Positions 5,876 to 26,110 of a stretch of 64,000 nucleotides of DNA are shown piece by piece. Every line of letters starts with the position of its first letter. Position 1 is the stretch's first letter. Under the pieces are notes generated by a model. The model saw only the letters and a list, made by a program, of their open reading frames with translations, was not told the DNA's origin and ran no database searches. This stretch comes from Streptomyces rubrogriseus (GTDB lineage: Bacteria > Actinomycetota > Actinomycetes > Streptomycetales > Streptomycetaceae). The position numbers were made by a program, and so were the translations under genes. The stretch is from positions 5,332,001-5,396,000 of the forward strand of contig NZ_CP116256.1 of assembly GCF_027947575.1 (NCBI RefSeq), read 5' to 3'.

Positions 5876-5968
5876 GGGGTGGGGGCGGGGGTGGTCGCGG
5901 GGGTGGGGGTGGTCGTGAGGGTGGGGGCATGCGGGGAGGCAGGGGCCGTCGCGGGGGTGGGGGTGGTC
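5876..5968. repeat. G-rich low-complexity repeat between cvnA and cvnB
   Basis: About 93 bp are built from runs of 4-5 G separated by T, TC or C on the plus strand. One 21-bp unit occurs exactly twice, at 5894-5914 and 5948-5968. The second copy overlaps the cvnA stop codon. The mRNA would be C-rich, while the template strand has many G-runs and could form a G-quadruplex. Neighbouring conservon genes overlap each other, so a 138-bp spacer here is unusual for the operon. Confidence 0.75.
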
Positions 5969-8739: not shown

Positions 8740-10245
8740 ATGACCGACACCGCCCCGGACGCCGCACCCCGCGCCACCACGTTCACCACCCGCGCCCCGG
8801 CGACCGGCGCGCCGCTGGCCGAACATCCGGTCTGCGGTCCCGAGGAGGTCGCCGGCGCCGTGGCGCGGGCCCGGCAGGCGCAGGAGGAGTGGGCCGTGCT
8901 GCCCGCGGCCCGGCGCCGGGAGCGACTGCTTCGCTGGAAACGGGTGCTGGCCCGCGAGTTGGGCACCGTCGCCCGGACCGTCGCCGAGGAGACCGGCAAG
9001 CCGGCCGGTGACGCCGAGCTGGAGGTCGTCCTCACGCTGGAGCACCTCGGGTGGGCCGCGCGCAACGCCGACCCCGTGCTGCGCCGGCGGCGGGTGCGCA
9101 CCGGGCTGTTCACGGTGCACCAACGGGCCTCGCTGGTGCACCGGCCGCTGGGAGTGGTCGGCGTGATCGGCCCGTGGAACTACCCCTGCTACACCCCGAT
9201 GGGCTCCATCGGATACGCCCTCGCGGCGGGGAACGCGGTGGTCCTCAAGCCCTCCGAACTGACCCCGGGCACCGGTCTCCTGCTCGCCGCGCTGTTCGAC
9301 GAGGCCGTGCCCGCGCACGCCGGGCTGTTCACCGCCGTCACCGGCGCCGCTGCCACCGGGGAGGCGCTGGCCCGCTCCGGGGTCGACAAGCTGGCGTTCA
9401 CCGGGTCGCCCGGGACCGCGCGCAAGGTGATGGCGGTCTGCGCCGAGACGCTGACCCCGTTCCTCGCCGAGTGCGGCGGCAAGGACGCCGTGATCGTCAC
9501 CGCGGACGCGGACCTGGACGCCGCCGCCGACGCGATCGTGTGGGGCGCCTTCGGCAACGCCGGGCAGACCTGTGCGGGAGTGGAGCGCGTCTACGCGGTG
9601 CGCGAGATCCACGAGGCGCTGTGCGAACGGGTGGTGCGGCGCGCCGGCGCGCTGCGGCCCGGCTCCGGCGGGGACGCGCACTACGGTCCGATGACCCTGC
9701 CGGGCCAGCTCGAGACCGTGGCGCGGCATGTGACCGAGGCGGTGTCGTCGGGCGCGCGGACCCTGCTGGGCGGTCCCGAGTCGGTCCGGGCGCCCTATGT
9801 CGCGCCCGTCGTGCTGACCGGCGCGCCGGCGGACTCGGCGGCGATGACGGAGGAGACCTTCGGCCCGGTCGTCGCCGTCGACGCGGTGGCCGACGTGGAC
9901 GAGGCGGTGGCCCGCGCCAACGACTCCCGGTACGCCCTGGGGGCCGCGGTGTTCTGCGGCAGCCGGCGCACCGGGGCCGCGATCGCGGCCCGGCTGCGTG
10001 CGGGGGCGGTGTCGGTGAACTCGGTGCTGGGTTTCGCGGCCGTGCCGGCGCTGCCGTTCGGCGGCTCGCGGGACTCCGGGTTCGGGCGGATCCACGGCGC
10101 GGAGGGGCTGCGGGCGTTCACGGCGGTGCAGTCGACGACCGTGCAGCGCTTCGCCCCGCCGATCGCGCTGACCTCCTTCGAGGTGCCGGCCGCCGCCCGG
10201 GAGCGCGCGGTGCGGCTGGCCCGGTCACTGCACCTGCGGCACTGA
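8740..10245 (+). CDS. NAD(P)-dependent aldehyde dehydrogenase (succinate-semialdehyde type)
   Basis: This 501-residue aldehyde dehydrogenase oxidises an aldehyde to its acid. The catalytic cysteine is in GNAGQTCAGVERVYAV, the general-base glutamate in LAECGGKDA, and FTGSPGTARKV is the cofactor-binding signature. The closest group I recall is the actinobacterial succinate-semialdehyde dehydrogenase-like set, so the substrate stays open. The ATG at 8740 follows GGGGGA; the open frame upstream is not ALDH-like. An AT-rich stretch at 8697-8730 is the likely promoter. Given lcp and the beta-oxidation genes nearby, it could oxidise isoprenoid aldehydes (inference). Confidence 0.92.
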   Translation: MTDTAPDAAPRATTFTTRAPATGAPLAEHPVCGPEEVAGAVARARQAQEEWAVLPAARRRERLLRWKRVLARELGTVARTVAEETGKPAGDAELEVVLTLEHLGWAARNADPVLRRRRVRTGLFTVHQRASLVHRPLGVVGVIGPWNYPCYTPMGSIGYALAAGNAVVLKPSELTPGTGLLLAALFDEAVPAHAGLFTAVTGAAATGEALARSGVDKLAFTGSPGTARKVMAVCAETLTPFLAECGGKDAVIVTADADLDAAADAIVWGAFGNAGQTCAGVERVYAVREIHEALCERVVRRAGALRPGSGGDAHYGPMTLPGQLETVARHVTEAVSSGARTLLGGPESVRAPYVAPVVLTGAPADSAAMTEETFGPVVAVDAVADVDEAVARANDSRYALGAAVFCGSRRTGAAIAARLRAGAVSVNSVLGFAAVPALPFGGSRDSGFGRIHGAEGLRAFTAVQSTTVQRFAPPIALTSFEVPAAARERAVRLARSLHLRH

Positions 10246-10268
10246 ACCGCCGGTGGATGAACGGCCGT

Positions 10269-10865
10269 TCAGACGTTGAGGAGCGGGGCCAGGTAGCGGC
10301 GGGCGAAGGCGCGGGCCTGGTCCTCGTCGTCCATCTCGATGCAGCTGGCCGGGTTGAGCAGGAAGGAGACGGCCACCCGCACCATGAGTTCGGCGACGGG
10401 CCGCGGGTCGTCGCCGGGCCTGCCCTCGGCCTGCTGCGCCCGGCGCAGGTGGCCCGTCAGGTAGTCGACGGTGGCGGCGAGCGAGGAACCGCCGTGCACG
10501 GTCAGGTACGGCAGCACCACCTCGGGCTCCAGCCGCAGCAGGCCTCCGAAGAGGGGGTGGGCGCGGGTGTGGCGCAGGGCGACCACGAACCCCTCGACGA
10601 CCCGTTCCTCCATGGTCGGCAGCGCGGCCACCGCTTGGTCCAGTCGTTGGAAGAACCGGCTGTTCTCGCGCAGCAGGGTCTGCTCGACCAGCGTGTCCTT
10701 GGTCCCGAAGCGCCGGTAGACGGTGACGCGGGAGACACCGGCCCGTTTGGCGACGTCGTCCATGGAGGAACGGCGCAGGCCGAAGACGGTGAACTGCTCC
10801 AGCGCCGCGTCGAGGATGCGTCGCGCCGTCGGGTCCTCCGTCTCGGTCTTCGCGGCCGTGGTCAC
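10269..10865 (-). CDS. TetR-family regulator
   Basis: This 198-residue TetR regulator has its helix-turn-helix at about residues 15-60 (ALEQFTVFGLRRSSMDDVAKRAGVSRVTVYRRFGTKDTL) and a variable ligand domain after it. The start is the GTG at 10863-10865, with GGAGGTG 7 nt upstream. It is divergent from the acyl-CoA dehydrogenase at 10939 with 73 bp between them, so control of that gene and of itself is likely. ACAA and TTGT ends of a weak inverted repeat lie at 10898-10916 in this gap. Confidence 0.92.
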   Translation of the reverse strand: MTTAAKTETEDPTARRILDAALEQFTVFGLRRSSMDDVAKRAGVSRVTVYRRFGTKDTLVEQTLLRENSRFFQRLDQAVAALPTMEERVVEGFVVALRHTRAHPLFGGLLRLEPEVVLPYLTVHGGSSLAATVDYLTGHLRRAQQAEGRPGDDPRPVAELMVRVAVSFLLNPASCIEMDDEDQARAFARRYLAPLLNV

Positions 10866-10938
10866 GACGCGGCACCTCCGTCCCGGGCGGTCGAGAAACA
10901 ACTGCCACCACTTTGTCACACGAGTTCTGGAGGACCTG

Positions 10939-12078: not shown

Positions 12079-12096
12079 GCGGGCCGGTGGACGAGC

Positions 12097-12130
12097 GGCG
12101 CCGCCCGCCCCGGCGGGGGCGGGCGGCGCC
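12097..12130. terminator. Bidirectional terminator
   Basis: A perfect 15-bp stem (GGCGCCGCCCGCCCC and its complement) with loop GGCG lies between the convergent acyl-CoA dehydrogenase and acyl-CoA synthetase genes. Confidence 0.88.
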
Positions 12131-12155
12131 GTCGGTCCGGCAGCCGAGTCCGGGC

Positions 12156-13994
12156 TCAGTCCCCGTACAGCCCGGCCAGCGCCTCGGCGTACTTGTCCCG
12201 GATGACCCGGCGCCGCATCTTCAGCGAGGGTGTCAGCTCGCCGGTCGCCGGGCCCCATTCCCCGGCCAGCAGCTCGTACCGCTTCACCTGCTCGGTACGG
12301 CTGAGCCGGGAGTTGGCGGCGGCCACCGCCCGGTCCACCTCGGCCCGCACGGCCGGGTGCGCCACCAGCCCGGCCACCGTGCCGTCCGCCTCGACGCCGT
12401 GGGCCGCGGCCCAGGCCGGGGCGGCCTCCGCGTCCAGCACCAGCAGGGCGACCAGGTAGGAACGCCGGTCTCCGTGGACCAGGGCCTGGCCGATCAGCGG
12501 GTGCTCCTTGAGCGCGTTCTCCACCAGGGCCGGAGAGACGTTCTTGCCGGTCGAGGTGATGATCATCTCCTTCTTCCGGTCGGTGAGCCAGAGGTAGCCG
12601 TCGTCGTCCGTGCGCCCGATGTCTCCGGTGGCCAGCCAGCCGTCGGCGTCCAGGGCGGAGCGCACCGATCCGTCCGGCCGGAGGTAGCCGGAGAAGACGG
12701 ACTCGCCCCGCACCTCGATCTCGCCGTCCGCGGCGAGCCGGACCTCGACGGACTCCACGGGGCGTCCCACCGAACCGATGCGGAATCCGGTGCGGGGGCT
12801 GTTGGTGGTGGCCACGCCGGTGGTCTCGGTCAGCCCCCAGGCATCCATGATCACGACACCGAACCCGGCCCAGAAGTCGACCACGTCGACCGGCATCGGC
12901 GCCGAGGCGCTGGCCGCCCAGGTCACCCGGTCGAGCCCGCCCGCCGCCAGCAGCGGCAGCAGGACCTCCTCGCGGGCACGGGCGTAGCGCGCCTCCAGCT
13001 CGGCGGGCGGCGACTCGCCCCGCTCGCGGTACCCGACGTGCTCGCGGGCCACCGCGGACGCCGCGTCGATGACCTCCCGCTGCTCGGCCGGCATCAGGGA
13101 GAGGACGGCCCGCACGGCGGCGCACAGCTTCTCCCAGATTCGCGGCACGCCGAAGAACTGCGCGGGACGCACCTTGCGCACGACCGTGCCGACGGCGGCG
13201 GGGTCGGCGCAGAGGTAGACGTGCGAAGCCCGGTGACAGGGGAGGTAGATGCCGAGCATCCGCTCCGCGATGTGGGCGAACGGCAGGTAGCAGATGTGCT
13301 CCACGTGCGGGGGCAGCTCCACCACCGCGTCCAGCGCGAGGGCGTTGGCCAGCACCTGTCGGTGGGTCAGGACTACGCCCTTGGGCTCGCCCGTGGTGCC
13401 GGAGGTGTAGACGACGGTCAGCGGGTCCTCGGGGTTCGCGGCGTCCAACTCCTTGGCGAACCGTTCCGGTGCCTGCTCCCGCAGGAGGTCGGCGTACGGG
13501 ACGTGGCCGCCCTCGGCGGCGGGCTCGGCGACCACCAGCCGCTCCAGCGGCGTATCGGCGTCGGTCAGGAGCGGCTCCCACAGCCGGGCCTGGTCCGCCC
13601 CCTCCACCACCGCGACCCGGGCCCGGCAGTTGCGGGCGATGTGGGTGATCTGCTCGGGGGCCGCGGTGGCGTAGACGCTGACCGGAACCGCACCCAGGCG
13701 GACCAGCGCCAGGTCGGACAGCCAGTGCTCGGGCCGGTTGGCCATCATCATCAGCACATGGTCGCCGCGGCCGACGCCGAGTCCCGCGTATCCGGCGGCC
13801 AGGCGTTCGGTGTGCTCGTGGATCTCCGCCCAGGTGAGCGTCGTCCAGTCGCCGTTCCCGTCTCCCTCCGGCGGCTGCCAGGACAGACCGGGGAGTCGCG
13901 GGTAGTCACGGGCGTTGCGGGCCAGCAGCCGGGGCAGCGTGCGCCGGGCCGACGCGTCGGGCGGTTCGCCGACGGTGCGGGGCTCTGGAGTCAT
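12156..13994 (-). CDS. Long-chain acyl-CoA synthetase (FadD15 type)
   Basis: This 612-residue AMP-forming ligase activates a free carboxylic acid to its CoA thioester. The P-loop-like motif is YTSGTTGEPKGVVLTH (about residues 190-205). The hinge region is GDIGRTDDDGYLWLTDRKKEMIITSTGKNVSP, the typical long-chain form. It is the last gene of a six-gene minus-strand operon and starts at the ATG at 13994, 36 bp after the fadB-type gene. In context it would feed acids into the same beta-oxidation set. Confidence 0.94.
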   Translation of the reverse strand: MTPEPRTVGEPPDASARRTLPRLLARNARDYPRLPGLSWQPPEGDGNGDWTTLTWAEIHEHTERLAAGYAGLGVGRGDHVLMMMANRPEHWLSDLALVRLGAVPVSVYATAAPEQITHIARNCRARVAVVEGADQARLWEPLLTDADTPLERLVVAEPAAEGGHVPYADLLREQAPERFAKELDAANPEDPLTVVYTSGTTGEPKGVVLTHRQVLANALALDAVVELPPHVEHICYLPFAHIAERMLGIYLPCHRASHVYLCADPAAVGTVVRKVRPAQFFGVPRIWEKLCAAVRAVLSLMPAEQREVIDAASAVAREHVGYRERGESPPAELEARYARAREEVLLPLLAAGGLDRVTWAASASAPMPVDVVDFWAGFGVVIMDAWGLTETTGVATTNSPRTGFRIGSVGRPVESVEVRLAADGEIEVRGESVFSGYLRPDGSVRSALDADGWLATGDIGRTDDDGYLWLTDRKKEMIITSTGKNVSPALVENALKEHPLIGQALVHGDRRSYLVALLVLDAEAAPAWAAAHGVEADGTVAGLVAHPAVRAEVDRAVAAANSRLSRTEQVKRYELLAGEWGPATGELTPSLKMRRRVIRDKYAEALAGLYGD

Positions 13995-14030
13995 CGGGGC
14001 CTCCTTGCGGGTGGGTGGGGAACGCCGGAG

Positions 14031-16232
14031 TCAGAAGTCCGTGAAGGTCTCACCGCGGTCCGCCTTGCGCAGCAGCAGCGGAGGCGGGGTGAAGCGCTCG
14101 CCGTAGCGGTCGGCCAGCTCGCGGGCGCGGGCGACGAAGCCGGGCAGGCCTGCACCTGCCCCGGCGCAGCCCTCGTAGCCGTTGATGTACTGGAGGACGC
14201 CGCCGGTCCAGCCGGGGAAGCCGATGCCGAGGATCGAGCCGATGTTGGCGTCGGCGACGGAGGTCAGCACGCCCTCCTCCAGGCAGCGCACCGCGTCCAG
14301 CGCCTCCACGAAGAGCATCCGCTCCCGCATGTCGGCGAACGGGATCTCGTACCCGGGCTTGGTGAAGTGTTCACGCAGCCCCGGCCACAGCCCCGCCCGC
14401 CTGCCGTCGGCCCCGTACCCGTAGAACCCGGCGCCGCCACTGCGTCCGGGGCGCTCGAACTGGTCGATCATGCGGTCGACGACGTGGTCCGCGGGGTGCG
14501 GCTCCCAGGTCCGCCCGGCCTCCTGGACGGCACGGCGGGTCTCCTCGCGGATCTTGCGGGGCAGGGTGAGGGTCAGCTCGTCCATCAGGGACAGCACCTT
14601 GGCCGGGTAGCCGGCCTGGGCCGCCGCCTGCTCCACCGAGGCGGGCTCGACGCCCTCCCCCACCATCGCCACGCCCTCGTTGATGAAGTGACCGACGACC
14701 CGGGAGGTGAAGAAACCCCGCGAGTCGTTCACCACGATCGGCGTCTTGCTGATCTGCCGGACCAGGTCGAACGCCCGCGCCAGCGCCTCGTCCCCGGTCC
14801 GCTCCCCCTTGATGATCTCCACCAGCGGCATCCTGTCGACCGGTGAGAAGAAGTGCAGCCCGATGAAGTCGGCCTGGCGCTCCACGCCCTCGGCCAGCGC
14901 CGTGATAGGCAGCGTGGAGGTGTTGGAACACAGCAGGGCGTCAGGGGCGACGACGTGCTCGATCTCCTGGAACACCTTGTGCTTGAGCGAGGTGTCCTCG
15001 AACACCGCCTCGATCACCGCGTCACAGCCCGCGAGGTCTCCCACCTCCGCGGTCGGCGTGATCCGCGCGAGCAGCGCGTCCGCCTTCTCCTGACTCGTAC
15101 GGCCCTTCGCCACGGCCTTCGCGCACAGCTTCTCCGAGTACGCCCTGCCCTTGAGCGCCGACTCCAGCGAGACGTCCTTCAGCACGACCTCGATGCCCGC
15201 ACGGGCACACGAGTAGGCGATCCCCGCACCCATCATCCCCGCGCCCAGCACGGCCACCTTGGTCACCCTCCGGGCCTCGACGCCCTTCGGGCGGTTCGCA
15301 CCCGAGTTGACCGCCTGGAGATCGAAGAAGAACGCCTGGATCATGTTCTTGGTGATCTGACCGGTGACGAGTTCCGTCAGGTACCGGGCCTCCACGACGA
15401 AGGCCGTGTCCAGGTCGACCTGGGCCGTCTCCACGGCCGCGGCGAGGATGTTGCGCGGAGCCGGGCCGGGGGCGCCGCCGGTCCGCTTCCTGAGCAGCGC
15501 GGGAAGGGCGGAGAGCCGGGCCGCGAGCTTCGGGTGCGACGGCGTGCCGCCGGGGATGCGGTGGCCGGGCCGGTCCCAGGGCTGGGCGGACTCCGGATGG
15601 GCGTCCACGAACGCCCGTGCCTTGGCGATGAGTTCTTCCGGGTCGGCGGCGATCTCGTCGACCAGTCCGGCTTCCAGGGCGTCGGCCGGCCCGTACTGGG
15701 TGCCTTCCATGAGGACGGTCCGCAGCGCGTTCACGACGCCGAACATCCGGACGGTGCGGGTCACTCCCCCGCCGCCCGGCAACAGGCCCAGGGTGACTTC
15801 GGGGAGCCCCACCCGGGCGGCCGGGGTGTCGAGGACCACGCGGTGGTGGCAGGCCAGGGCGATCTCGTAACCGCCGCCGAGGGCCGCGCCGTTGATCGCG
15901 GCGACGACGGGCCTGCCCAGGGTCTCCAGGGCGCGCAGCGAGCGCTTGACGCGCATGCCCGCCTCGAAGGACTGCTGTGCGGTCGCCGGGGTGACGGAGA
16001 TCAGGTCGCGCAGGTCGCCGCCGGCGAAGAAGCTCTTCTTGGCCGAGGTGACGACGACGCCGCGGATGTCGTCACGGCGGTCCACGAGCCGCTGCGCGAC
16101 GGCGTCGAGCGAGTCGATGAACGCGGCGTTCATGGTGTTGGCGGACTGGCCCGGATCGTCCAGGACGAGGGTGACGACGCGGTCCTCGGACTCCTCCCAG
16201 CGGATGGTGGAGGGCCGTGCGGTGGTGTCCAT
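14031..16232 (-). CDS. Fatty acid oxidation complex alpha subunit (enoyl-CoA hydratase / 3-hydroxyacyl-CoA dehydrogenase)
   Basis: This 733-residue bifunctional enzyme carries an N-terminal crotonase domain (residues 1 to about 190, with GAALGGGYEIALACHHRV) and an NAD-binding 3-hydroxyacyl-CoA dehydrogenase part starting near 330 (VAVLGAGMMGAGIAYSCARAG). It hydrates 2-enoyl-CoA and oxidises the 3-hydroxy product. The start is the ATG at 16232 with GGAG 9 nt upstream; the open frame beyond it has no family similarity. It follows the thiolase by 44 bp, the usual fadA-fadB pairing. Confidence 0.95.
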   Translation of the reverse strand: MDTTARPSTIRWEESEDRVVTLVLDDPGQSANTMNAAFIDSLDAVAQRLVDRRDDIRGVVVTSAKKSFFAGGDLRDLISVTPATAQQSFEAGMRVKRSLRALETLGRPVVAAINGAALGGGYEIALACHHRVVLDTPAARVGLPEVTLGLLPGGGGVTRTVRMFGVVNALRTVLMEGTQYGPADALEAGLVDEIAADPEELIAKARAFVDAHPESAQPWDRPGHRIPGGTPSHPKLAARLSALPALLRKRTGGAPGPAPRNILAAAVETAQVDLDTAFVVEARYLTELVTGQITKNMIQAFFFDLQAVNSGANRPKGVEARRVTKVAVLGAGMMGAGIAYSCARAGIEVVLKDVSLESALKGRAYSEKLCAKAVAKGRTSQEKADALLARITPTAEVGDLAGCDAVIEAVFEDTSLKHKVFQEIEHVVAPDALLCSNTSTLPITALAEGVERQADFIGLHFFSPVDRMPLVEIIKGERTGDEALARAFDLVRQISKTPIVVNDSRGFFTSRVVGHFINEGVAMVGEGVEPASVEQAAAQAGYPAKVLSLMDELTLTLPRKIREETRRAVQEAGRTWEPHPADHVVDRMIDQFERPGRSGGAGFYGYGADGRRAGLWPGLREHFTKPGYEIPFADMRERMLFVEALDAVRCLEEGVLTSVADANIGSILGIGFPGWTGGVLQYINGYEGCAGAGAGLPGFVARARELADRYGERFTPPPLLLRKADRGETFTDF

Positions 16233-16276
16233 GACTGAGGTCTCCAGTGAGGTCTCGGGCGGGGGCAGCACGGAGG

Positions 16277-17491: not shown

Positions 17492-17562
17492 CTCGGGGGT
17501 CCTCCCAGTGGGTGTGTGGCAGCCCGCGGTCGCGGCGGGCAACGGTGGGGACGGTCGGCGGC

Positions 17563-18711
17563 TCAACCCAGGAGGGAGCGGCCGATGATCTCCTTCATGA
17601 TCTCGGTGGTGCCGCCGTAGATGGTCTGGACGCGTCCGTCGAGGAACGCCCGCGCCACCCGGTACTCGCTCATGTAGCCGTAGCCGCCGTGCAGTTGCAG
17701 ACAGCGGTCGACGACCCGCTTCTGGAGTTCGGTGGCCCACCACTTGGCCATCGAGGCGTGCACGGGGTCGAGCCGGCCCGCGACGTGCTCGGTGACACAG
17801 CGGTCCAGGAAGGTGCGGGTGACCGCCGCCTCGGTGGCCATCTCGGCGATCTCGAAGCGGACGTGCTGGAGTTTGGCCAGCGGCCGGCCGAAGGCCTCGC
17901 GCTCCTTCACGTAGCGCGTGGTGATGTCGAGGATCTCCTCGGCCGCCGCGGCGGCGCCGACCGCGATGGCCAGCCGCTCCTGGGCGAGGTTGCCCATCAG
18001 GTAGGTGAAGGCGCGGTTCTCCTCGCCGAGCAGGTTCTCCTTGGGGACGCGTACGTCGTTGAAGAACAGTTCGGCGGTGTCCTGGGCCTTCTGGCCGATC
18101 TTGGCGAGGTTGCGGCCCCGTTCGAAGCCGTCCGCGCCGCGTTCGACGACGAGCAGGCTCTGCCCGGCGCTGCCGCCCTCGGGAGTGGTACGGGCGACCA
18201 CCACGACGAGGTCGGCGAGGATGCCGTTGGAGATGAAGGTCTTCGAGCCGTTGAGCAGGTAGTGGTCGCCGTGGTCGGTGGCCGTGGTGCGGATGCCCTG
18301 GAGGTCGGAACCGGCTCCGGGTTCGGTCATGGCGACGGCGGTGACGATGTCGCCGGAGACGAAGCCGGGCAGCCAGCGCCGCTTCTGCTCCTCGGTGGCG
18401 AGCCGGGTGAGGTAGGGGCCGACGATGTCGTTGTGCAGGCTCAGGGCCAGTCCGGAGGCTCCGGCGCGGGCGAACTCCTCGATGAGGACGGCGCTGTAGC
18501 GGAAGTCGTCGTTGCCACCACCGCCGTACTCCTCGTCGACGGCCGGTCCCAGCAGGCCCTGGCGGCCCGCCGAGTACCAGACCTCGCGGTCGACGACGCC
18601 GTTGCGTTCCCAGCGTTCGTGGTGCGGCGCCACCTCCTTGGCGAGGAAGGCGCGCACGGTGTCGCGGAAGGCCTCGTGGTCGGGGCCGTACAGGTCTCGT
18701 CGGAAGGTCAC
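17563..18711 (-). CDS. Acyl-CoA dehydrogenase
   Basis: This 382-residue enzyme has the family signatures [28 protein letters not shown] and [12 protein letters not shown], and ends with [18 protein letters not shown]. As in the other dehydrogenase of the window the motif is YGGT, not YEGT, suggesting a long- or branched-chain enzyme. Its GTG start overlaps the stop of the upstream LLM oxidoreductase gene as GTGA, so translation is coupled. It is the third gene of the operon that starts with the racemase. Confidence 0.94.
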
Positions 18712-19733
18712 AGCCAACCCCTCACTCGCTCGATCAGCCGGGCGGGATCCGCTCCGACGGGCGTGACGTCCAGCATCGTCACGCCCGACTCGCGGAAGGC
18801 CTCGACGCGTTCGCGGACGTGGCCCTCGGGACCGGCCAGGCAGATTCGCTCCAGCAGTTCGGCGGGGACGGCGGCCTCCGCCTCCTTCCTGCGGCCCGCG
18901 AGGTAGTGCTCCTGGATGGCGGCCGCGGCGGCCTCGTAGCCGTAGGAGCAGATCAGGTCGTGGTAGAAGTTGCGGCCCGGGGCGCCCATGCCGCCGACGT
19001 ACAGGGCGACGGTGGGGCGCATCAGGTCGTGGACCGCTTCGGCGTCGTCGTCGATGGCGAGCAGGCCGCCCGCCACGACCGCCAGCGGTCCGAGCGCGGG
19101 ATCGCGCCTGGCGGTGCCCTCGGCCAGGGACGGACCCCACACCTTCGCGGCGTGTTCCGGCGCGTAGAGGAACGGCAGCCAGCCGTCGGCCAGTTCGGCG
19201 GTCATCCGGACGTTGGCCGGGCCGAGTGCGGCGACGTACACGGGGATGGTGCCGCGCACCGGGTGGGTGAGCAGCTTGAGGGGTTTGCCGAGCGTGCCGC
19301 CCTTCTCGGGCGGCAGGGGCAGGTCGGTGATGCCGCGGTGCTCGATCACCTCGCGCCGCCAGATCCGCCGCGACAGTTCGATGACCTCGCGGGTGCGGCC
19401 CAGCGGGCGGTCGTAGCGGCGGCCGTGCCAGCCCTCGACGACCTGCGGCCCGGAGGCGCCGATGCCGAGGAGGGCCCGGCCGCCGGTGAGGGCGTCGAGT
19501 CCGGCGGCGGTCTGGGCGATCAGGGCGGGGCTGCGCGAGTAGACGTTCAGGATGGCAGAGCCGATGCGCATGCGCTCGGTCCTGGCGGCCAGGTATCCCA
19601 TGATCGTCGGTGAGTCGAAGCCGTACGCCTCGGCCACCCAGACGGCGTCGAGTCCGGCGGACTCCAGGGCGGCCGCCCGGTCCGCGGCCGCCCGCGGGTC
19701 GCCCGTGTACGTCAGCGGTGAGGACAGTTCCAT
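18708..19733 (-). CDS. LLM-class flavin (F420-dependent) oxidoreductase
   Basis: This 341-residue protein has the luciferase-like monooxygenase fold: [25 protein letters not shown] near the N-terminus and [32 protein letters not shown] in the middle. Many actinobacterial members use coenzyme F420 for hydride transfer, but the cofactor and substrate cannot be decided here. Its ATG overlaps the racemase stop by one base (TGATG) and its stop overlaps the next start by four. The tight coupling to acyl-CoA genes suggests it acts on an acyl-CoA or an alcohol/aldehyde precursor. Confidence 0.9.
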
Positions 19734-20896
19734 CAGCTGCGGTCCTTCGGGGGGTCGGACAGGTGGGGCAGGTCCCAGTCCCGGGCCACGTCGGCGGTGT
19801 GCGCGCCGGGAACGGCGGGCGGCAGGCGCAGGGTGCCGGGGGTGGCGGAGAAGCGGGGCGCGGGTGCGGGCTGGGTGACGCCGTGCGCCTCGGTGTAGGT
19901 GCCGCGGCCGGTCAGGTGCGGGTGGTCCGCCGCCTCTCGCAGGGAGAGGACGGGGGCCACGCACGCGTCGGTGCCCTCGAAGACGGCCGTCCACTCCTCC
20001 CGGGAGGCGGTCTTGAAGCGGGCGGTGAACAGGGCTTGCAGCGCGGGCCAGTTGCGCGGCTCCGAGCGGTCCGGCAGGGCGTCCCCGGACAGGCCCAGCA
20101 GGGTGACGAAGGTGGTGTAGAAGCGCGGTTCCAGGGCGCCGACCGCCATCCAGCCGCCGTCGCCGGTCTCGTACGCGCGGTAGTACGGGCAGCCTCCGTC
20201 CAGGAGGTTGGTCCCGCGGTCCTCGCGCCAGGTCCCCGCGGCGAGCATGCCCCAGAAGAGCGCGGTGAGGTGGGCCGTGCCGTCGACGATCGCGGCGTCC
20301 ACCACCTGGCCGCGGCCGGTGGTGCGGGCGGTGAGCAGCGCGGCCAGGACGCCGGTGGTGAGGTAGAGGGAGCCGCCCGCGTAGTCGCCGAGCAGGTTGG
20401 CGGGGACGGCGGGCGGTCCGTCCGGTGCCCCGAGCATGGAGAGGGCGCCGGCCGTGGCGATGTAGCCGATGTCGTGTCCGGCCCGGGGCGCGAGCGGCCC
20501 CCGCTGGCCCCAGCCGGTCATCCGGCCGTACACCAGGGCGGGGTGGGCGGCCATGCACTCCTCGGGGCCGACCCCGAGCCGCTCGGCGACCCCGGGGCGG
20601 TACCCCTCCACCAGGATGTCGGCGCGGGCGGCCAGGGCCCGTACGGTCTCCGGGCCGCCGGGTGACTTGAGGTCGACCAGGACCGAGCGCTTGTTGCGGT
20701 TGGTCACGTCGTGGGCGGGGTCGCCGGCGAGCGGGCCGGGGACGGGGCGGTCGACGCGCACCACGTCGGCGCCGAGGTCGCCGAGCAGCATCGCGGCGAA
20801 CGGGCCGGGTCCGATACCGGCCAGCTCGAGAACGCGCACGCCGTCCAGCGGACCGGCGCAGGACCGGGCGGGGGGATCAGGGGGACGGTGGCTCAT
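19733..20896 (-). CDS. Alpha-methylacyl-CoA racemase (class III CoA-transferase family)
   Basis: This 387-residue CaiB/BaiF-family protein matches the racemase branch. The acid-base pair is visible as H141 (AGHDIGY) and D171 (LLGDYAGG), with the same 30-residue spacing as H126/D156 of the mycobacterial racemase MCR. NLLDGGCPYYRAYETGDG followed by MAVGALEPRFY also matches animal AMACR. It interconverts (2R)- and (2S)-methylacyl-CoA so that branched chains can enter beta-oxidation. It is the first gene of the six-gene operon and is divergent from the tetR at 21140, with two matching palindromes between them. Confidence 0.88.
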   Translation of the reverse strand: MSHRPPDPPARSCAGPLDGVRVLELAGIGPGPFAAMLLGDLGADVVRVDRPVPGPLAGDPAHDVTNRNKRSVLVDLKSPGGPETVRALAARADILVEGYRPGVAERLGVGPEECMAAHPALVYGRMTGWGQRGPLAPRAGHDIGYIATAGALSMLGAPDGPPAVPANLLGDYAGGSLYLTTGVLAALLTARTTGRGQVVDAAIVDGTAHLTALFWGMLAAGTWREDRGTNLLDGGCPYYRAYETGDGGWMAVGALEPRFYTTFVTLLGLSGDALPDRSEPRNWPALQALFTARFKTASREEWTAVFEGTDACVAPVLSLREAADHPHLTGRGTYTEAHGVTQPAPAPRFSATPGTLRLPPAVPGAHTADVARDWDLPHLSDPPKDRS

Positions 20897-20949
20897 GGGT
20901 TCCTCTCTCGGGACGCGGGGGACTCGCCGCCGCGCGACCGGGACCTTAC

Positions 20950-20963
20950 TGAGCGTTCGCTAA
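20950..20963. promoter_or_regulatory. Candidate TetR operator, racemase side
   Basis: TGAGCGTTCGCTAA is a 14-bp palindrome of form T-N-AGCG-NN-CGCT-N-A. It lies 54 bp before the racemase start. A close copy lies at 21091-21104 near the divergent tetR, the expected layout for a regulator that controls both directions. Confidence 0.65.
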
Positions 20964-21090
20964 GAACGTAGAAGCGTCCCGTCGATCGGTCAACGCCCTG
21001 AACGACGGGATTTGGCGCGGTACTTGACGGCCGGAGGGGACGGAGACGCACACTTGCCCCGTGGATCCGCCGCTCCTCTCCCGCGATCGC

Positions 21091-21104
21091 TTATCGATCG
21101 CTAA
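21091..21104. promoter_or_regulatory. Candidate TetR operator, tetR side
   Basis: TTATCGATCGCTAA matches the 20950-20963 palindrome with one half-site base changed (ATCG for AGCG). It lies about 35 bp before the tetR start, where binding would block transcription. Confidence 0.6.
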
Positions 21105-21139
21105 GCTCCCGGGGGAGGGGCACTGATTCCGAGGAGACG

Positions 21140-21814
21140 TTGTTGAGCACCGAGCAGAGCCAGGACAGCACGGCCACGGCGCGGCACTGGCGTTCCTACG
21201 GGCCGCTGGACCTGCACCCGATCCTGGTTCACGCCATGGAGGCCTTCAACGAGCACGGTTACCACGGCACTTCGGTCCGCAACATCGCCGGCCGGGTCGG
21301 CGTCACCGTGCCCGCCCTCTACTACCACTACGAGAACAAGCAGGCCCTGCTGGCAACTTTGCTGGAGACGTCCATCAAGGACGTCCTGGACCGTTGCCGG
21401 GCGGCGGCCGCGGAGGCGGGGCCCGCTCCGCTGGCGCGGTTCTGCGGCATGGTCGAGTCGATCGTGCTCTACATGGCCCACCGCAGGTCGCTGGCGTTCC
21501 TGGACACCGAGATACGCAGCCTGGAGCCGGCCAACCGGGCGCGTTACGTGGCCCTGCGCGACTATCTCCAGCACATGCTGCTCGACACGGTCGAAGCCGG
21601 CCGCGCCGAGGGCGTGTTCACCACCGAGATCCCCGCCGACGCCGTCCGTGCGGTCCTGATCATGTGCCAGGGCGTCGCCAACTGGTTCCGCCCCGACGGG
21701 CCCCTCACCGCGGAACAGGTCGCCGAACGCCACGTCCTGCTGAGCCTGGGCACCGTGGGGCACCCCCTGCCCTCCCCCGCGCCGCGGGTCCCGGCACCGT
21801 ACGGCTCCCGATGA
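21140..21814 (+). CDS. TetR-family regulator, divergent from the racemase operon
   Basis: This TetR protein of 224 residues (223 from the second start) has its helix-turn-helix at about 30-75 (AMEAFNEHGYHGTSVRNIAGRVGVTVPALYYHYENKQALL) and a helical ligand domain after it. Two TTG codons stand next to each other at 21140 and 21143. GAGGAGA ends at 21137, so the second, 5 nt away, is the better start. Related regulators next to acyl-CoA genes usually respond to acyl-CoA. The two palindromes at 20950 and 21091 make it the likely repressor of the operon and of itself. Confidence 0.93.
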   Translation: MLSTEQSQDSTATARHWRSYGPLDLHPILVHAMEAFNEHGYHGTSVRNIAGRVGVTVPALYYHYENKQALLATLLETSIKDVLDRCRAAAAEAGPAPLARFCGMVESIVLYMAHRRSLAFLDTEIRSLEPANRARYVALRDYLQHMLLDTVEAGRAEGVFTTEIPADAVRAVLIMCQGVANWFRPDGPLTAEQVAERHVLLSLGTVGHPLPSPAPRVPAPYGSR

Positions 21815-21836
21815 CATCGACGAGAGGACGCCCCTC

Positions 21837-22304
21837 ATGGACCGGCTCCAGGCCCGTACCCGCTTCCAGGCACTGCGCGAGACGAAGGGCAGGGTGGCGG
21901 CGGCCGCGCTGGACGAGGTGTGGGCCGTACTGGACACCGTCCGGCCCGAGGAGATCCTCGGCGAGTGGAAGGGCGGCGAGTTCGACACCGGCCACCCGCT
22001 GGGCGGCGAGCTGGCGAAGGCGGGCTGGTACGGCAAGACCTTCGCCTCGGTGCACGACGCCAAGCCGCTGATGTGCCGGGACGCGGCGGGCGAGCTGTAT
22101 TCCGACCTGGAGCTGGGCAAGGGCGAGGCCAGCCTGTGGACGGTGGAGTTCCGCGGCGAGTCGACGGCCACGATGGTCTACGACGGCCGGCCGGTCCTCG
22201 ACCACTTCAAGCGGGTGGACGACACCACCCTCATGGGCATCATGAACGCCAAGGGCGTGCCCGCCGAGGGTCCTTACTACTACTTCTTCCTGGAGCGCGC
22301 GTGA
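21837..22304 (+). CDS. DUF4334 (GXWXG motif) protein
   Basis: This 155-residue protein starts with a GXWXG block (EEILGEWKGGEFDTGH, about 38-53) and ends with the DUF4334 part (TMVYDGRPVLDHFKRVDDTTLMGIMNAKG). The biochemical role of the family is not established. GAGAGGA precedes the ATG. It lies 22 bp after tetR and overlaps the alcohol dehydrogenase start by GTGA, so all three are probably one transcript. The pairing suggests a role with alcohol or aldehyde intermediates; this is only context. Confidence 0.88.
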   Translation: MDRLQARTRFQALRETKGRVAAAALDEVWAVLDTVRPEEILGEWKGGEFDTGHPLGGELAKAGWYGKTFASVHDAKPLMCRDAAGELYSDLELGKGEASLWTVEFRGESTATMVYDGRPVLDHFKRVDDTTLMGIMNAKGVPAEGPYYYFFLERA

Positions 22305-23391
22305 GGCGTGCCCGGGCCGCGGTCGTCCGGGAGCCGGGCGCCCCGTTCACCGTCCTGGAGGTGGAGCTGGAGGACCCGCGTCCGCGCGAGGTGCTGGTCA
22401 GGATGACCGCGGCCGGGGTGTGCCACACGGATCTGGGAATCCAGGCCGGCTGGCCCCGGCGGCTGACCCCCATGGTCTTCGGCCACGAGGGCGCCGGCCG
22501 GGTCGAGGCGGTGGGCGCGGAGGTGACCGGTCTCGTGCCGGGGGACACCGTCTGCCTCACCTTCGCCAGCTGCGGCGGGTGCGGGCAGTGCACCGCGGGC
22601 ATCCGGCGTACTGCGACGCGGCCCGGGACCTCAACCTCTCCGGCGGGCGCGAGGACGGCAGCACCCCGCTCCGCCTGGACGGCGCCCCGCTGCACGGCGG
22701 CTTCTTCGGGCAGTCCAGCTTCGCCACGTACGCCGTGGTCCACCAGCGCGGCGTGGTCAGGGTGCCCGCCGACCTGGCCCCGACGCTCGCCGCGCCCCTG
22801 GGCTGCGGAGGCCAGACGGGGGCGGGGACGGTGCTCAACCGGCTGCGCCCCGAGCCGGGCACCTCGCTCGTGGTGCTCGGGGCCGGCGGGGTGGGGCTGA
22901 GCGCGCTGATGGCCGCGGTGGCCGTGGGCTGCGACCCGGTGCTGGCCGTCGACCCGGTCGCCTCCCGGCGGGACCTGGCCCGCGCACTCGGCGCCAGGGC
23001 CGCCCTGCCGCCGGACGACGCTCTCGTCGCGTCGGTGCGGGAACTCACCGACGGCGGGGCGCACCACGTCGTGGACACCACCGGCCGGCCCGGGATGCTC
23101 GACCGGGCCGTCGCGGCGCTGCGTCCGCGCGGGGCGCTCGCCCTCCTCGGCCTCGGCGGTGAGGTGACGTTCGACATGATGCGCCTGATGACCAAGGGGG
23201 TCCGCCTGCACGGGGTGATGGAGGGCGACTCCGACCCCGCCCGCTTCGTCCCGGAGCTGATCGCCCTGCACGGGCGCGGGCTCTTTCCGGTGGACCGGTT
23301 GGTCACCACGTTCGCCTTCGAGGAGATCGGCGCCGCCGTCGCCGCCATGCGCGACGGAAGCGCGGTGAAGCCGGTCCTCACCTTCTCCTGA
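22301..23391 (+). pseudogene. Zinc-dependent alcohol dehydrogenase, frameshifted
   Basis: Two frames together encode one medium-chain alcohol dehydrogenase of about 363 residues. The first part starts at GTG 22301 and holds the catalytic-zinc motif GVCHTDLG, GHEGAGRVEAVG and the first structural-zinc cysteines CGGCGQC. The second frame resumes as HPAYCDAARDLNLSGG and continues through the Rossmann motif GAGGVGLSALMAA to 23391. One base, most simply a C in GGGC|ATCC near 22600, is missing. The shift falls inside the structural-zinc lobe. Either the gene is recently inactivated or the sequence has an error; all other regions look intact. Confidence 0.88.
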
Positions 23392-23489
23392 CGGGCGGCG
23401 CGGCCGACCGGGGGACGGGCGCCGGGGGGGGCGCGGCGGACCCGCGGACCAGGTGCCGGGAAGGCCGGGGCGGCCCCGGAGAGGTGTGG

Positions 23490-24698
23490 TTGACTGAACC
23501 GCATGGTCCCGCCCCCGTATCCGCCCGTCCGGCCGTGACCGCCGATCCGACCACGGCAGCCCGGCCCCGCAACCGCAGGCAGCTCATCGTCGAGGCGGCG
23601 GGCCGGGTCTTCAGCGAACGCGGCTACCACCGGGCCTCCATGGAGGAGATCGCCGCGGGCGTCGGCATCACCGCGGCGGCCCTGTACCGGCACTTCCCGA
23701 ACAAGTACGCGCTCTTCGCCGAGTGCGCCGACGTCATGGCCCAGGGGCTGGTGGCCGCGCTCGACGGGGTGCCGCCCGGGGCGCCCCTGACGGATGTACT
23801 CGACGCCGTCGCCGGGGTCACGGTCGCGTACCGGGCGTCGGGGGGCGTGTACCGGTGGGAGGCCCGCTACCTCAACCGTGAGGACCGCAGGCGCCTGCGG
23901 GCGAAGTTCGGGCGGATCGTCGGGCGGGTCGACGAGGCGGTGCGGCGGGAGTACCCGCCGGCCGACGAGGGGCTGCGGGCCGTGGCCGCCCTGGGCGCGA
24001 TCGGTTCCGTCACGATGCACCGCACCTCGATCGCCGCGCGCCGGGCGGAGAGCCTGCTGTCGGCGTCGGCGCTGCGGGTGGCCGCCGCCGGCCCGGCCGC
24101 GGCGGGCGGCGGCGTCGGCCCGGTCGAACTGCCCGCCCAGCCGGTGCCGCGCACCCGGCGGGCGGAGATCCTCGCCGCCGCCGTCCCGCTGTTCGCGCGG
24201 GACGGGTTCGCCAACGTCACCAACAACCAGATCGCGCGGGAGGTGGGGCTGGCCCCGTCGGCGCTCTACCGCCACTACCCCGGCAAGGTCGACATCCTGG
24301 CGGCGGCGTGCCTCCAGGCGGCGGGTCTGCTGGCCCAGGGAGTGGAGCGGAGCCTGCGCGAGGTGACCGGCCCGCATCAGGCCGTGGCCGCGCTGGCGGC
24401 CACCTACGTGGCCTACAGCTTCGAGTACACCGCGCTCAACAGCGTCGCGGAGGCCGAGTTGACCGGACTGCCCGCGGACCTGCGGCGCCCCCTGGTCCAC
24501 GCGCAGCGGGAGCACATCGCCGTCTGGGAGCAGCAGTTGCGGCTGGCCCGACCGGAACTCGACCCGCGTCAGGCCCGGGTGCTGGTGCACGCGGGGTTCG
24601 GGGTGGTGGTCGAGGCCGGCCGCAGCCTGCGCTGGCGGGACGGCCCCGGCCACCGTGACGCCGTGACCGCGCTGGTGGTGGCGGCCCTCGGGCTGTGA
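23490..24698 (+). CDS. Regulator with two TetR DNA-binding domains
   Basis: This 402-residue protein has two complete TetR helix-turn-helix units: about residues 28-75 (VFSERGYHRASMEEIAAGVGITAAALYRHF) and about 215-262 (LFARDGFANVTNNQIAREVGLAPSALYRHY), each followed by a helical domain. Fused TetR pairs may bind DNA as a pseudo-dimer. GGAGAGG at 23478-23484 favours the TTG at 23490; a GTG at 23484 would overlap it. Its stop lies 25 bp from that of lcp, which converges on it. TetR proteins near lcp are known lcp regulators in Gordonia and S. coelicolor, so this is a candidate, by position only. Confidence 0.9.
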   Translation: MTEPHGPAPVSARPAVTADPTTAARPRNRRQLIVEAAGRVFSERGYHRASMEEIAAGVGITAAALYRHFPNKYALFAECADVMAQGLVAALDGVPPGAPLTDVLDAVAGVTVAYRASGGVYRWEARYLNREDRRRLRAKFGRIVGRVDEAVRREYPPADEGLRAVAALGAIGSVTMHRTSIAARRAESLLSASALRVAAAGPAAAGGGVGPVELPAQPVPRTRRAEILAAAVPLFARDGFANVTNNQIAREVGLAPSALYRHYPGKVDILAAACLQAAGLLAQGVERSLREVTGPHQAVAALAATYVAYSFEYTALNSVAEAELTGLPADLRRPLVHAQREHIAVWEQQLRLARPELDPRQARVLVHAGFGVVVEAGRSLRWRDGPGHRDAVTALVVAALGL

Positions 24699-24723
24699 GC
24701 GGGCGGCCGGGCGGGCCGGTGGG

Positions 24724-25929
24724 TCAGCCCGGCCTGTTGCCGGTGGGGATGGTGATCGGGGTGGTGGTCCCGGAGGAGCCCTTGTTGAGGAACAGCATGG
24801 CCAGGGCGCGCACGAACTGGTCGACCAGGTAGAAGGTGCCGGGCATGATCGGCGACAGTCCCTCCCGGAACTTGATGTACGCGGGCCACGCGGTGCGGAC
24901 CAGGGCCGCCGCCACCGGGTCGCGCCGCAGCCCCAGCCAGTCGCCGACCTCGTCGCTGAGGACGTAGCGCACGAACTCGTTCAGGAACCCGCGGGTGACA
25001 CCGAGGTCGATCTGCGCGGTCAGGCCGAGCAGTTCCTCGGCGAGCTTGATGCCCTCGGTCGTCGGGGCGAGGATCGGGGTCAGCACCTGCGCGGACTGCG
25101 CCTCCGCGGCCGCCCAGGTCTTGGGGATGTACTCGTCCGGCACCCCCAGCAGGTGGAGGGCGACCTGCCAGGAGTGCAGGAACGCCTCCTGGTCCTCGGC
25201 CGGGAACGGGACCTTCCACTCGACCAGCTTGCTGCGTACGTAGGTTCCCAGGCTGTGGAAGGTGACCAGGATGTCGGCGGCACTGATCGGGATGTCCTGG
25301 TCCGCGCCGGACGTCCAGTGCGGCGAGCGCGGCAGCAGGTGCCGGACGGCGGCGTGCACCAGCCGGGTCTTGTTGGCGGTGACGACGAACTGCCCGGTCG
25401 GCTCGAACGCCTTCAGCTGGGACAGGTCGTAGCCGAAGGTGAACGTCTTGGCGGCGCGGTCCTGCATGTCGGCGCCGCCCGCCGACCAGTAGACGCTCCT
25501 GGCCTCGCGCGGGATGACGGTGCTCATGATGCCGCTGCCGAGGCCGTACAGCATGAACAGGTACGTGTCCCGGCGCCGGTTGAAGTCGGCCGCGCGGGTC
25601 AGCTTGGTCCGGTCGGCCCAGGACGGCAGCCGGTTGACCTGCCGCAGATGCGCGGTGAGCTCGGCCGGGAATCCGCCGGGCAGCGGGTCGGCGTTGTTCA
25701 CCCACCCGGCCATCGCGGTGTTGATCGACGGAACGCTGCCGTTCTCGAGCAGCGCGGCCATCAGGGGGTCCGTCGCGCTGTCCCACACGTACTCCGGATC
25801 GGCGCCCGCGCCGGTGCCGGCCACCGAGTCCGCCGACGGCCACGCCCATCCCTTCGCGCCGTCCGCCACGCCCACGAGCCCGAGCGCGACACCGAGCGAC
25901 AGGACTCCTCGCCTGCTGAGATTCTCCAT
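24724..25929 (-). CDS. lcp: Latex clearing protein (secreted rubber oxygenase)
   Basis: Lcp is a b-type haem dioxygenase that cleaves cis-1,4-polyisoprene outside the cell into oligomers with aldehyde and ketone ends. This 401-residue protein starts with a Tat signal (SRRGVLSLGVALGLVG). R158, K161, T162 and H192 line up, with a constant offset of six, with R164, K167, T168 and the haem ligand H198 of Streptomyces sp. K30 Lcp. Family blocks AAKTFTFGYDLS, NKTRLVHAAVRHLLPRSPHW and ILVTFHSLGTYV are clear. The ribosome site is weak (GGGAAG). It stands as a single gene, convergent with the double TetR gene. Confidence 0.93.
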   Translation of the reverse strand: MENLSRRGVLSLGVALGLVGVADGAKGWAWPSADSVAGTGAGADPEYVWDSATDPLMAALLENGSVPSINTAMAGWVNNADPLPGGFPAELTAHLRQVNRLPSWADRTKLTRAADFNRRRDTYLFMLYGLGSGIMSTVIPREARSVYWSAGGADMQDRAAKTFTFGYDLSQLKAFEPTGQFVVTANKTRLVHAAVRHLLPRSPHWTSGADQDIPISAADILVTFHSLGTYVRSKLVEWKVPFPAEDQEAFLHSWQVALHLLGVPDEYIPKTWAAAEAQSAQVLTPILAPTTEGIKLAEELLGLTAQIDLGVTRGFLNEFVRYVLSDEVGDWLGLRRDPVAAALVRTAWPAYIKFREGLSPIMPGTFYLVDQFVRALAMLFLNKGSSGTTTPITIPTGNRPG

Positions 25930-25982
25930 TGACTTAACCCGCTTCCCTGAAGGTCAGACGGTTCACTGAGCTGTTCTCGCAC

Positions 25983-25996: not shown

Positions 25997-26110
25997 CACC
26001 ACACTTCGAGCCCTGCCGAGTGATGTGATTTCTCATTAACATAGCGAGGCACGTCTGCGTGAGCAATGGGCGTGACGGAGGGTTCGTGGGCGGTCCGGGC
26101 CCGTCATACG

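What the first reader, a model, noticed from the sequence alone, without database searches (positions are those of the whole stretch)
8740..25929. A locus that may take polyisoprene from extracellular cleavage to beta-oxidation
In 17 kb the window has a rubber oxygenase with all known haem-site residues, an aldehyde dehydrogenase, an acyl-CoA synthetase, two acyl-CoA dehydrogenases, an alpha-methylacyl-CoA racemase with its catalytic pair, a FadB-type enzyme, a thiolase and four TetR regulators. Known: Lcp yields isoprenoid aldehydes and ketones, and in Gordonia polyisoprenivorans a racemase of this type is needed for rubber use. Inference: the genes form one catabolic pathway that ends in acetyl- and propionyl-CoA. 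The LLM enzyme and DUF4334 would be undescribed parts of it.
Basis: partly seen in the sequence, partly recalled or inferred. Interest (0 to 1): 0.8.

Follow-up and report, generated by a model that had tools for sequence, protein, structure and literature searches.

The report
Rubber-cleavage gene with isoprenoid-degradation operon
A Streptomyces chromosome carries a rubber-cutting enzyme beside a set of fatty-acid-type enzymes that tend to occur together with it across the genus, which makes the poorly known later steps of bacterial rubber digestion testable.

Summary
Window 8740-25929 (Streptomyces) encodes a real latex-clearing protein (53% identical to LcpK30, haem-site residues kept), its known double-TetR regulator LcpRB with an operator about 95 bp before lcp, and a beta-oxidation module: racemase (MCR), F420-type LLM enzyme, LCAD-like dehydrogenase, thiolase, FadB, FadD, second dehydrogenase, ALDH, GXWXG/DUF4334 and a Zn-ADH. 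In 392 Streptomyces genomes the ALDH is in 30 of 35 with this lcp type and 6 of 357 without; the locus-type MCR is in 14, each among the 35. On a 60-genome tree the ALDH link survives phylogeny (13 pairs: 8.6 same way, 0.5 opposite, median p 0.008; 0.02 if one weak match is discounted). With linked cases dropped the test is too small (p 0.25). In 12 of 80 lcp loci a different ALDH lies divergent from lcp across the LcpRB operator region. Corrections: not one regulon here (MCR operon has its own TetR2 palindromes); another MCR-thiolase-FadB operon lies near the window; the ADH frame is broken; four lcp-less genomes carry ALDH and LLM. Enzyme functions are inferred; co-expression is untested.

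The parts
8740..10245 (+). Aldehyde dehydrogenase (501 aa), proposed oligo-isoprenoid aldehyde to acid
   Evidence: Pfam Aldedh E 2.9e-122; ATG at 8740; in 30 of 35 lcp-clade and 6 of 357 other Streptomyces genomes
10269..10919 (-). TetR1 regulator
   Evidence: TetR_N E 1.2e-14; kept beside ALDH in L087 and L091-L093, L095-L097
10939..12078 (+). Acyl-CoA dehydrogenase 1
   Evidence: Gly at the MCAD-type Glu site, Glu in the NHER stretch (read by eye from the alignment; site roles recalled)
12156..13994 (-). Acyl-CoA synthetase (FadD, FadD11-like)
   Evidence: AMP-binding E 1.7e-67; best NCBIfam model FadD11, below its cut-off
14031..16271 (-). FadB-type enoyl-CoA hydratase/3-hydroxyacyl-CoA dehydrogenase (start uncertain)
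   Evidence: 3HCDH_N and ECH_1
16277..17491 (-). Thiolase
   Evidence: NCBIfam acetyl-CoA C-acetyltransferase PRK08242 above its cut-off
17563..18711 (-). Acyl-CoA dehydrogenase 2, LCAD-like
   Evidence: mitochondrial LCAD 8W0T E 2.8e-122, QER and IYGGT stretches shared; best hit is 2PG0
18708..19733 (-). LLM-class F420-dependent oxidoreductase, Rv3520c subfamily
   Evidence: TIGR03559 484.9 bits, cut-off 335
19733..20896 (-). Alpha-methylacyl-CoA racemase (MCR); one search used 19733-20839, ATG at 20896 in the ORF list
   Evidence: 1X74 E 2.5e-115, H126/D156/E241 kept; ORF
20949..20964 (.). Palindrome before MCR, putative TetR2 operator
   Evidence: two such sites in 24 of 24 intergenic regions examined
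21090..21105 (.). Palindrome before TetR2, putative TetR2 operator
21140..21814 (+). TetR2 regulator, divergent from MCR
   Evidence: TetR_C_24 E 1.9e-26
21837..22304 (+). GXWXG-DUF4334 protein
   Evidence: Pfam; solved homologue 4MVE, uncharacterised; 28 of 35 versus 9 of 357 genomes
22301..23391 (+). Zn-type alcohol dehydrogenase, reading frame broken here
   Evidence: ADH_zinc_N only in the open frame; N-terminal motif in the same frame in L005, L006 (same genome as L092), L011 and L091, not in the window
23484..24698 (+). LcpRB-type double TetR regulator
   Evidence: two TetR_N stretches; at 55% or more identity in 64 of 80 lcp loci
24724..25929 (-). Latex-clearing protein (Lcp)
26024..26043 (-). 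LcpRB operator, TATGTTAAT-N2-AAAATCACA with 1 mismatch
   Evidence: one site in the genome with up to 3 mismatches; present in 71 of 79 loci with up to 4 mismatches

Best explanation
The locus is a rubber/oligo-isoprenoid catabolic island. Secreted Lcp cleaves polyisoprene outside the cell to oligo-isoprenoids with aldehyde and methyl-ketone ends; its expression is controlled by LcpRB at the operator 26024-26043. Products enter the cell (importer not found), ALDH makes the acid, FadD the CoA ester, and ACAD1/ACAD2, FadB and thiolase run beta-oxidation. The first cycle should give a 2-methylacyl-CoA whose wrong epimer MCR converts; the next should give propionyl-CoA. The LLM F420 enzyme is proposed to reduce the 4-methyl-2,4-dienoyl-CoA that arises from the in-chain double bond, a step for which the scanned window genes hold no FadH-type enzyme. 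TetR2 probably senses a pathway CoA ester and represses the MCR operon through the two palindromes. Shown by computation: gene content, operator-like sites, co-occurrence, repeated synteny. Inferred: each substrate and reaction, the LLM and GXWXG roles, the TetR2 ligand and its binding.
For: Lcp and LcpRB identity and operator. In the same 392 genomes: locus-type MCR in 14, each among the 35 with window-type lcp (39, 40; Fisher 1.3e-16); ALDH 30 of 35 vs 6 of 357 (43; 8e-34); GXWXG 28 of 35 vs 9 of 357 (44; 1e-28). Phylogeny-aware pairs on 60 genomes: ALDH 8.6 same/0.5 opposite of 13, median p 0.008 (55; 0.02 with the 54%-identical G002 match counted as absent); GXWXG 10.2/0, p 0.002. ALDH unlinked from lcp in 11 lcp genomes. 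A different ALDH divergent from lcp across the LcpRB operator region in 12 of 80 loci, with GXWXG in 6 of them (88; domains checked in three loci, 85-87). S. cellulosae JCM 4462 (L048) has the window layout as far as the held DNA goes; strain AC04842, which the authors identify as S. cellulosae, uses rubber, and both its lcp genes rise 4-40-fold on polyisoprene; its lcp1 matches an S. cellulosae JCM 4462 protein at 100% (PMC9108482).
Against: No shared operator links lcp and the MCR operon. Four lcp-less genomes (G089, G090, G109, G388) have ALDH and LLM. Five of 35 lcp genomes lack the ALDH at the cut-off. With linked and unclear rows dropped, the phylogenetic pairs for ALDH are 3.5 same, 0.5 opposite of 8 (p 0.25). 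LLM: 4.9 same, 1.2 opposite (p 0.22), and with linked rows dropped 14 of 25 versus 4 of 16 genomes (Fisher 0.06), pairs 3.4 to 1.4, p 0.63. MCR 4.9 to 0 (p 0.06). No importer or FadH among the scanned genes. The near-universal MCR and the second MCR-thiolase-FadB operon could do those steps.
Confidence: 0.72

Rival explanations
1. The module is a general pathway for methyl-branched or acyclic isoprenoid acids (for example terpenoid or lipid-derived) that rubber users also draw on; its link with lcp reflects a shared niche, not a rubber-specific pathway.
For: Own regulator and palindromes, also present in lcp-less G109; lcp-less genomes G089, G090, G109, G388 with ALDH and LLM; module often built around the other MCR-thiolase-FadB operon.
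Against: 32 of 36 ALDH genomes have some lcp, and a different ALDH sits across the LcpRB operator region in 12 of 80 lcp loci. No geranyl-CoA-carboxylase-type genes among the 50 of 57 predicted window genes scanned with Pfam.
Confidence: 0.22
2. Chance neighbourhood: lcp and its regulator landed next to an ordinary beta-oxidation operon, and the block spread by common descent.
For: Thiolase and FadB here are 93% and 83% identical to the second operon in the same genome; with linked rows dropped the tree test is not significant.
Against: Co-occurrence persists when unlinked (11 of 16 versus 6 of 357, Fisher 1e-13 without phylogenetic correction), in several arrangements, and in phylogenetically independent pairs with linked rows included.
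Confidence: 0.06

Closest known systems
Streptomyces sp. AC04842 / S. cellulosae lcp region (PMC9108482; sections 18 and 23 and passages seen)
   Same: Gene order MCR-TetR-hypothetical-ADH-TetR-lcp; lcp induced on rubber; two Mcr genes noted in the genome
   Different: In the parts seen the LLM-ACAD-thiolase-FadB-FadD-ACAD-ALDH run is not presented as a rubber operon; its Fig. 3 legend and its text appear to swap lcp1 and lcp2
LcpRB of S. coelicolor A3(2) and ACTI_69510/lcp3 of Actinoplanes OR16 (PMC8235351, PMC7413915; passages seen)
   Same: Double-TetR protein, operator TATGTTAAT-N2-AAAATCACA upstream of lcp; the OR16 protein was shown to bind
   Different: OR16 lcp3 is reported to have no other known rubber genes near by; here a catabolic operon follows
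lcp-oxiB-oxiA operon of Streptomyces sp. K30 (PMC9108482, PMC8235351; passages seen)
   Same: lcp with an aldehyde-oxidising system
   Different: Molybdenum hydroxylase OxiAB there; an aldehyde-dehydrogenase-family enzyme here and no OxiAB among the scanned window genes
Oligo-isoprene ALDHs of Nocardia farcinica NBRC 15532 and Gordonia VH2 (PMC9782182; abstract and passages seen)
   Same: ALDH route for Lcp products
   Different: Those enzymes were assayed; orthology with the window ALDH was not tested here
KstR regulon gene Rv3520c of mycobacteria (PMC1995591; passages seen)
   Same: LLM-F420 subfamily TIGR03559 under a TetR-type repressor of lipid degradation
   Different: That it belongs to cholesterol breakdown is recalled; no function of Rv3520c was found in the passages seen

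Membership tests
Latex-clearing protein (Lcp) | PF09995 domain and full-length homology to LcpK30 | tested here: met
Latex-clearing protein (Lcp) | R164, T168, H198 (near-invariant) and K167 ligand | tested here: met
   feature list from PMC6311187 passages
Latex-clearing protein (Lcp) | 13-residue region KTRLVHAAVRHLL | tested here: met
   present in the translation; definition from PMC8235351 passage
Latex-clearing protein (Lcp) | Twin-arginine signal | tested here: inconclusive
   SRRGVL at the N terminus by eye; no predictor run
Latex-clearing protein (Lcp) | Cleavage of polyisoprene | not testable with these tools
   needs an assay
LcpRB regulator | Two TetR domains in one chain beside lcp | tested here: met
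LcpRB regulator | Operator upstream of lcp | tested here: met
   binding itself not testable
Alpha-methylacyl-CoA racemase | His126/Asp156 (and Glu241) of the solved racemase 1X74 | tested here: met
   alignment; residue roles recalled
Single LcpRB regulon | LcpRB operator also at the MCR operon or ALDH | tested here: not met
   one site with up to 3 mismatches in the whole genome; a relaxed pattern adds one further window site, over the lcp start
OxiAB route | Molybdenum hydroxylase genes near lcp | tested here: not met
   none among 50 of 57 predicted window genes; rest of the genome not searched
Acyclic terpene (Atu/Liu) route | Biotin-dependent carboxylase genes (recalled) | tested here: not met
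   none among the same 50 genes; rest of the genome not searched

The most novel reading that the evidence does not exclude
Rubber-using actinomycetes have more than once assembled, from different gene stocks, an lcp-linked isoprenoid-acid module in which an F420-dependent LLM enzyme does the dienoyl-CoA reduction normally done by FadH and the GXWXG/DUF4334 protein, of no known function, handles or carries the isoprenoid intermediate together with the Zn-ADH.
Probability: 0.25. Interest if true: 0.75.

Novelty: new variant of a known kind. Interest (0 to 1): 0.55.

Why it matters
In the papers seen, steps after Lcp cleavage are mostly assigned by genome-wide lists of candidate genes (PMC8538451 and PMC9108482 passages). 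This gives a short, specific candidate list with two regulators and operator-like sites, ties a protein family of unknown function (GXWXG/DUF4334) to lcp, and offers genomes in which the set is complete, partial or absent, so that the pathway can be tested directly.

Tried and rejected
One-regulon idea: the LcpRB operator was sought in the window and genome and found at lcp only; a relaxed form, tried on the window alone, added one weak site over the lcp start. The TetR2 palindrome with up to 2 mismatches is not specific in the genome (302 hits versus 233 for the reversed control); at 0 mismatches there are three places, two of them the MCR/TetR2 pair. LLM co-occurrence was weaker than hoped: 33 of 44 lcp genomes versus 4 of 16 without lcp, those 4 having been chosen for their ALDH; without them 33 of 44 versus 0 of 12; with linked and unclear rows dropped 14 of 25 versus 4 of 16. 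The metallo-hydrolase gene 26202-27386 right of lcp had no counterpart in the 80 loci at the cut-offs and was left out. Plasmid origin: no plasmid record covers most of 19733-25929, and an Lcp relative (E up to 1e-40) is on 2 records. A structure model of the GXWXG protein could not be made, so its fold is untested.

Rows and choices: the 60-genome tree is not a random sample (35 with window-type lcp; 6 with ALDH but not that lcp, two of these with another lcp type; 7 with other lcp types only; 12 others picked by me before looking at LLM). Linked (14) and unclear (5) rows were labelled by hand from the coordinates. After a check of contig lengths G385 moved to unclear (both genes lie near contig ends) and G041 to unlinked; one search repeats the test with the same outcome. 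Unlinked is certain on one contig in G052, G065 and G354; in the other eight it rests on distances to contig ends. The ALDH match in G002 is only 54% identical. In MCR pairs the truncated G129 copy was counted as present.
Full report
What is there. The window lies on a single-contig Streptomyces chromosome (G000, 8,411,861 bases; the genus follows from the named relatives). A frame-composition gene call gave 57 genes; 50 of them were scanned with Pfam. The finding's genes are present. Lcp (24724-25929, -) aligns with LcpK30 over its length (E 3.8e-128; 53% identity). The residues that the review PMC6311187 (passages) calls near-invariant or ligands, R164, T168, H198 and K167, are kept, as is E148 (recalled); H184 is not. 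The 13-residue KTRLVHAAVRHLL region is intact. An RR motif stands at the N terminus by eye.

Regulation of lcp. The gene next to lcp (23484-24698) holds two TetR_N domains. Papers describe such a two-HTH regulator, LcpRB, in S. coelicolor A3(2), and a duplicated TetR protein, 72.3% identical to it, that binds upstream of lcp3 in Actinoplanes OR16; the operator is given as TATGTTAAT-N2-AAAATCACA (PMC8235351 and PMC7413915, passages). The window has this site with one mismatch at 26024-26043, about 95 bp before the lcp start, and it is the one site with up to three mismatches in the genome. Among 79 lcp loci of other genomes (of 80; one had no usable start) 71 have it with at most four mismatches, 46-148 bp upstream; the best reverse-strand match in the same stretches has six or more mismatches. 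LcpRB relatives (55% or more) are in 64 of 80 loci (46 of 47 Streptomyces-type ones), tail to tail with lcp in 49 and upstream in 15.

The catabolic genes. MCR, LLM, ACAD2, thiolase, FadB and FadD run in one direction with gaps of at most about 71 bp. ACAD2 resembles mitochondrial long-chain acyl-CoA dehydrogenase (8W0T) and keeps its QER and IYGGT stretches; that this class accepts branched chains is recalled. LLM belongs to TIGR03559, the Rv3520c subfamily; the Rv3520c/Rv3521 intergenic region holds a KstR motif in mycobacteria (PMC1995591, passages). Two palindromes of the form CTKAGCGNNCGMTMAG lie in the MCR/TetR2 intergenic region. Both are present, with at most three mismatches over 14 scored positions, in the 24 of 24 intergenic regions examined, the window included; among them are G132, where the module is unlinked from lcp, and G109, which has no lcp. 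So TetR2, not LcpRB, most likely controls this operon.

Dedicated copy or housekeeping. The own genome has such a copy (69%) with thiolase (93%) and FadB (83%), 9.8-14.4 kb beyond the window's right end (L086). The locus-type MCR is different: over 392 genomes it occurs in 14 (E up to 1e-175), each of them among the 35 with window-type lcp (78% or more identity); 12 lie within about 6 kb of lcp, one (G337) is in a genome of 1510 contigs and on another contig, and one (G132) is unlinked. G129 has a further piece of such an MCR at a contig edge.

Co-occurrence. In the same 392 genomes the ALDH (E up to 1e-150; identity 54-100%) is in 36: 30 of the 35 with window-type lcp and 6 of 357 without it; two of these six have another lcp type. 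GXWXG (E up to 1e-35) is in 37: 28 of 35 and 9 of 357. Fisher values are 8e-34 and 1e-28 but treat genomes as independent. On an rpoB-region tree of 60 genomes 13 independent pairs differ in lcp; ALDH goes the same way in 8.6, opposite in 0.5 (median p 0.008; 8.6 to 1.0 and p 0.02 if the 54% match of G002 is not counted), GXWXG 10.2 to 0 (p 0.002), MCR 4.9 to 0 (p 0.06). In 11 lcp genomes the ALDH is unlinked from lcp: 0.4, 2.7 and 6.6 Mb apart on one contig in G052, G354 and G065, and far from contig ends on another contig, or too far from the facing ends, in eight. With the 14 linked and 5 unclear rows removed, Fisher is 1e-13, but only 8 pairs remain (3.5 to 0.5, p 0.25), so independence from linkage is suggested, not proved. 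LLM relatives of 69% or more are in 28 of 35 window-type lcp genomes, 5 of 9 with other lcp types, 0 of 12 lcp-less genomes picked without regard to it, and the 4 lcp-less genomes chosen for ALDH (three of the 28 are partial matches). The tree test is not significant with those four (p 0.22), borderline without them (p 0.06), and not significant with linked rows dropped (3.4 to 1.4, p 0.63).

Several arrangements. (a) Beside lcp, as here (18 of 80 loci with MCR of 74% or more in the held DNA). (b) Built around the other MCR-thiolase-FadB operon, far from lcp: G052 and G065, and without ALDH in the held DNA G122, G279, G328 and G307. (c) Elsewhere, without thiolase and FadB: G132. (d) A different ALDH (37-40% identity) divergent from lcp with the LcpRB operator, or its best match, in the shared intergenic region: 12 of 80 loci, in Streptomyces, Nocardioides, Actinophytocola and Umezawaea (in L072 and L074 the best match has 5-6 mismatches). 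Of these 12, GXWXG (55-60%) with an ADH relative is in 6 and an ACAD2 relative of 56-58% in 7. In Umezawaea endophytica the set is LcpRB, FadD, ACAD, Zn-ADH, GXWXG, ALDH, lcp; in Nocardioides sp. YR527 ADH-GXWXG-ALDH, lcp, LcpRB; in S. triticagri ACAD-ALDH, lcp, LcpRB, FadD. That these are repeated assemblies rather than one old, rearranged set is inference; no gene trees were built. I take it as the strongest sign that these enzyme types work on Lcp products. Not every lcp locus fits: the Microbacterium and most Amycolatopsis loci showed few or none of these genes in the held DNA.

Literature. PMC9108482 (sections 18 and 23 and passages) shows MCR-TetR-hypothetical-ADH-TetR-lcp in rubber-using Streptomyces sp. 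AC04842, with 4-40-fold higher transcription of its two lcp genes on polyisoprene. Its lcp1 matches a protein of S. cellulosae JCM 4462 at 100%; the JCM 4462 locus here (L048) has the window layout. That lcp1 is the L048 gene is my inference from the identity values. In the listings of the ten paper searches and the passages seen, no paper names the LLM or DUF4334 gene, or this full run, as part of rubber use; subscription papers are not held. [quoted passage not shown]

Verdict. A known kind of rubber oxygenase and its known regulator, joined to an lcp-associated isoprenoid beta-oxidation module.

Noticed in passing
22301-23391: Zn-alcohol dehydrogenase split over two reading frames in the window, whole in the near relative G245 (L091) and others; sequencing error or recent loss cannot be told apart.
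   Followed up: partly
32398-45332: Hopanoid-type isoprenoid biosynthesis cluster (DXS, IspG, squalene-hopene cyclase, polyprenyl synthase, two squalene/phytoene-synthase proteins, radical SAM, amine oxidase, class III aminotransferase) close to the isoprenoid degradation genes (cluster name recalled).
   Followed up: no
30191-30350: c-di-AMP riboswitch (66.9 bits) just upstream of a LysM/M23 peptidase gene 29250-30188.
   Followed up: no
L086:9812-14410: Second MCR-thiolase-FadB operon in the same genome; thiolase 93% and FadB 83% but MCR only 69% identical to the window copies, so thiolase/FadB may have joined the lcp-side operon later or been homogenised.
   Followed up: partly
25918-25936: A weaker LcpRB-like site (2 mismatches to a relaxed pattern) spans the lcp start codon.
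   Followed up: no
3838-7874: GAF, ATP-binding, Roadblock and HATPase genes in a row, like a Streptomyces conservon (name recalled).
   Followed up: no
L066-L070, L073, L075-L077, L079, L083, L084: Microbacterium and Agromyces loci keep an LcpRB-like operator before lcp (2-4 mismatches; 5 in L079) but show no LcpRB gene of 55% or more within the held DNA.
   Followed up: no
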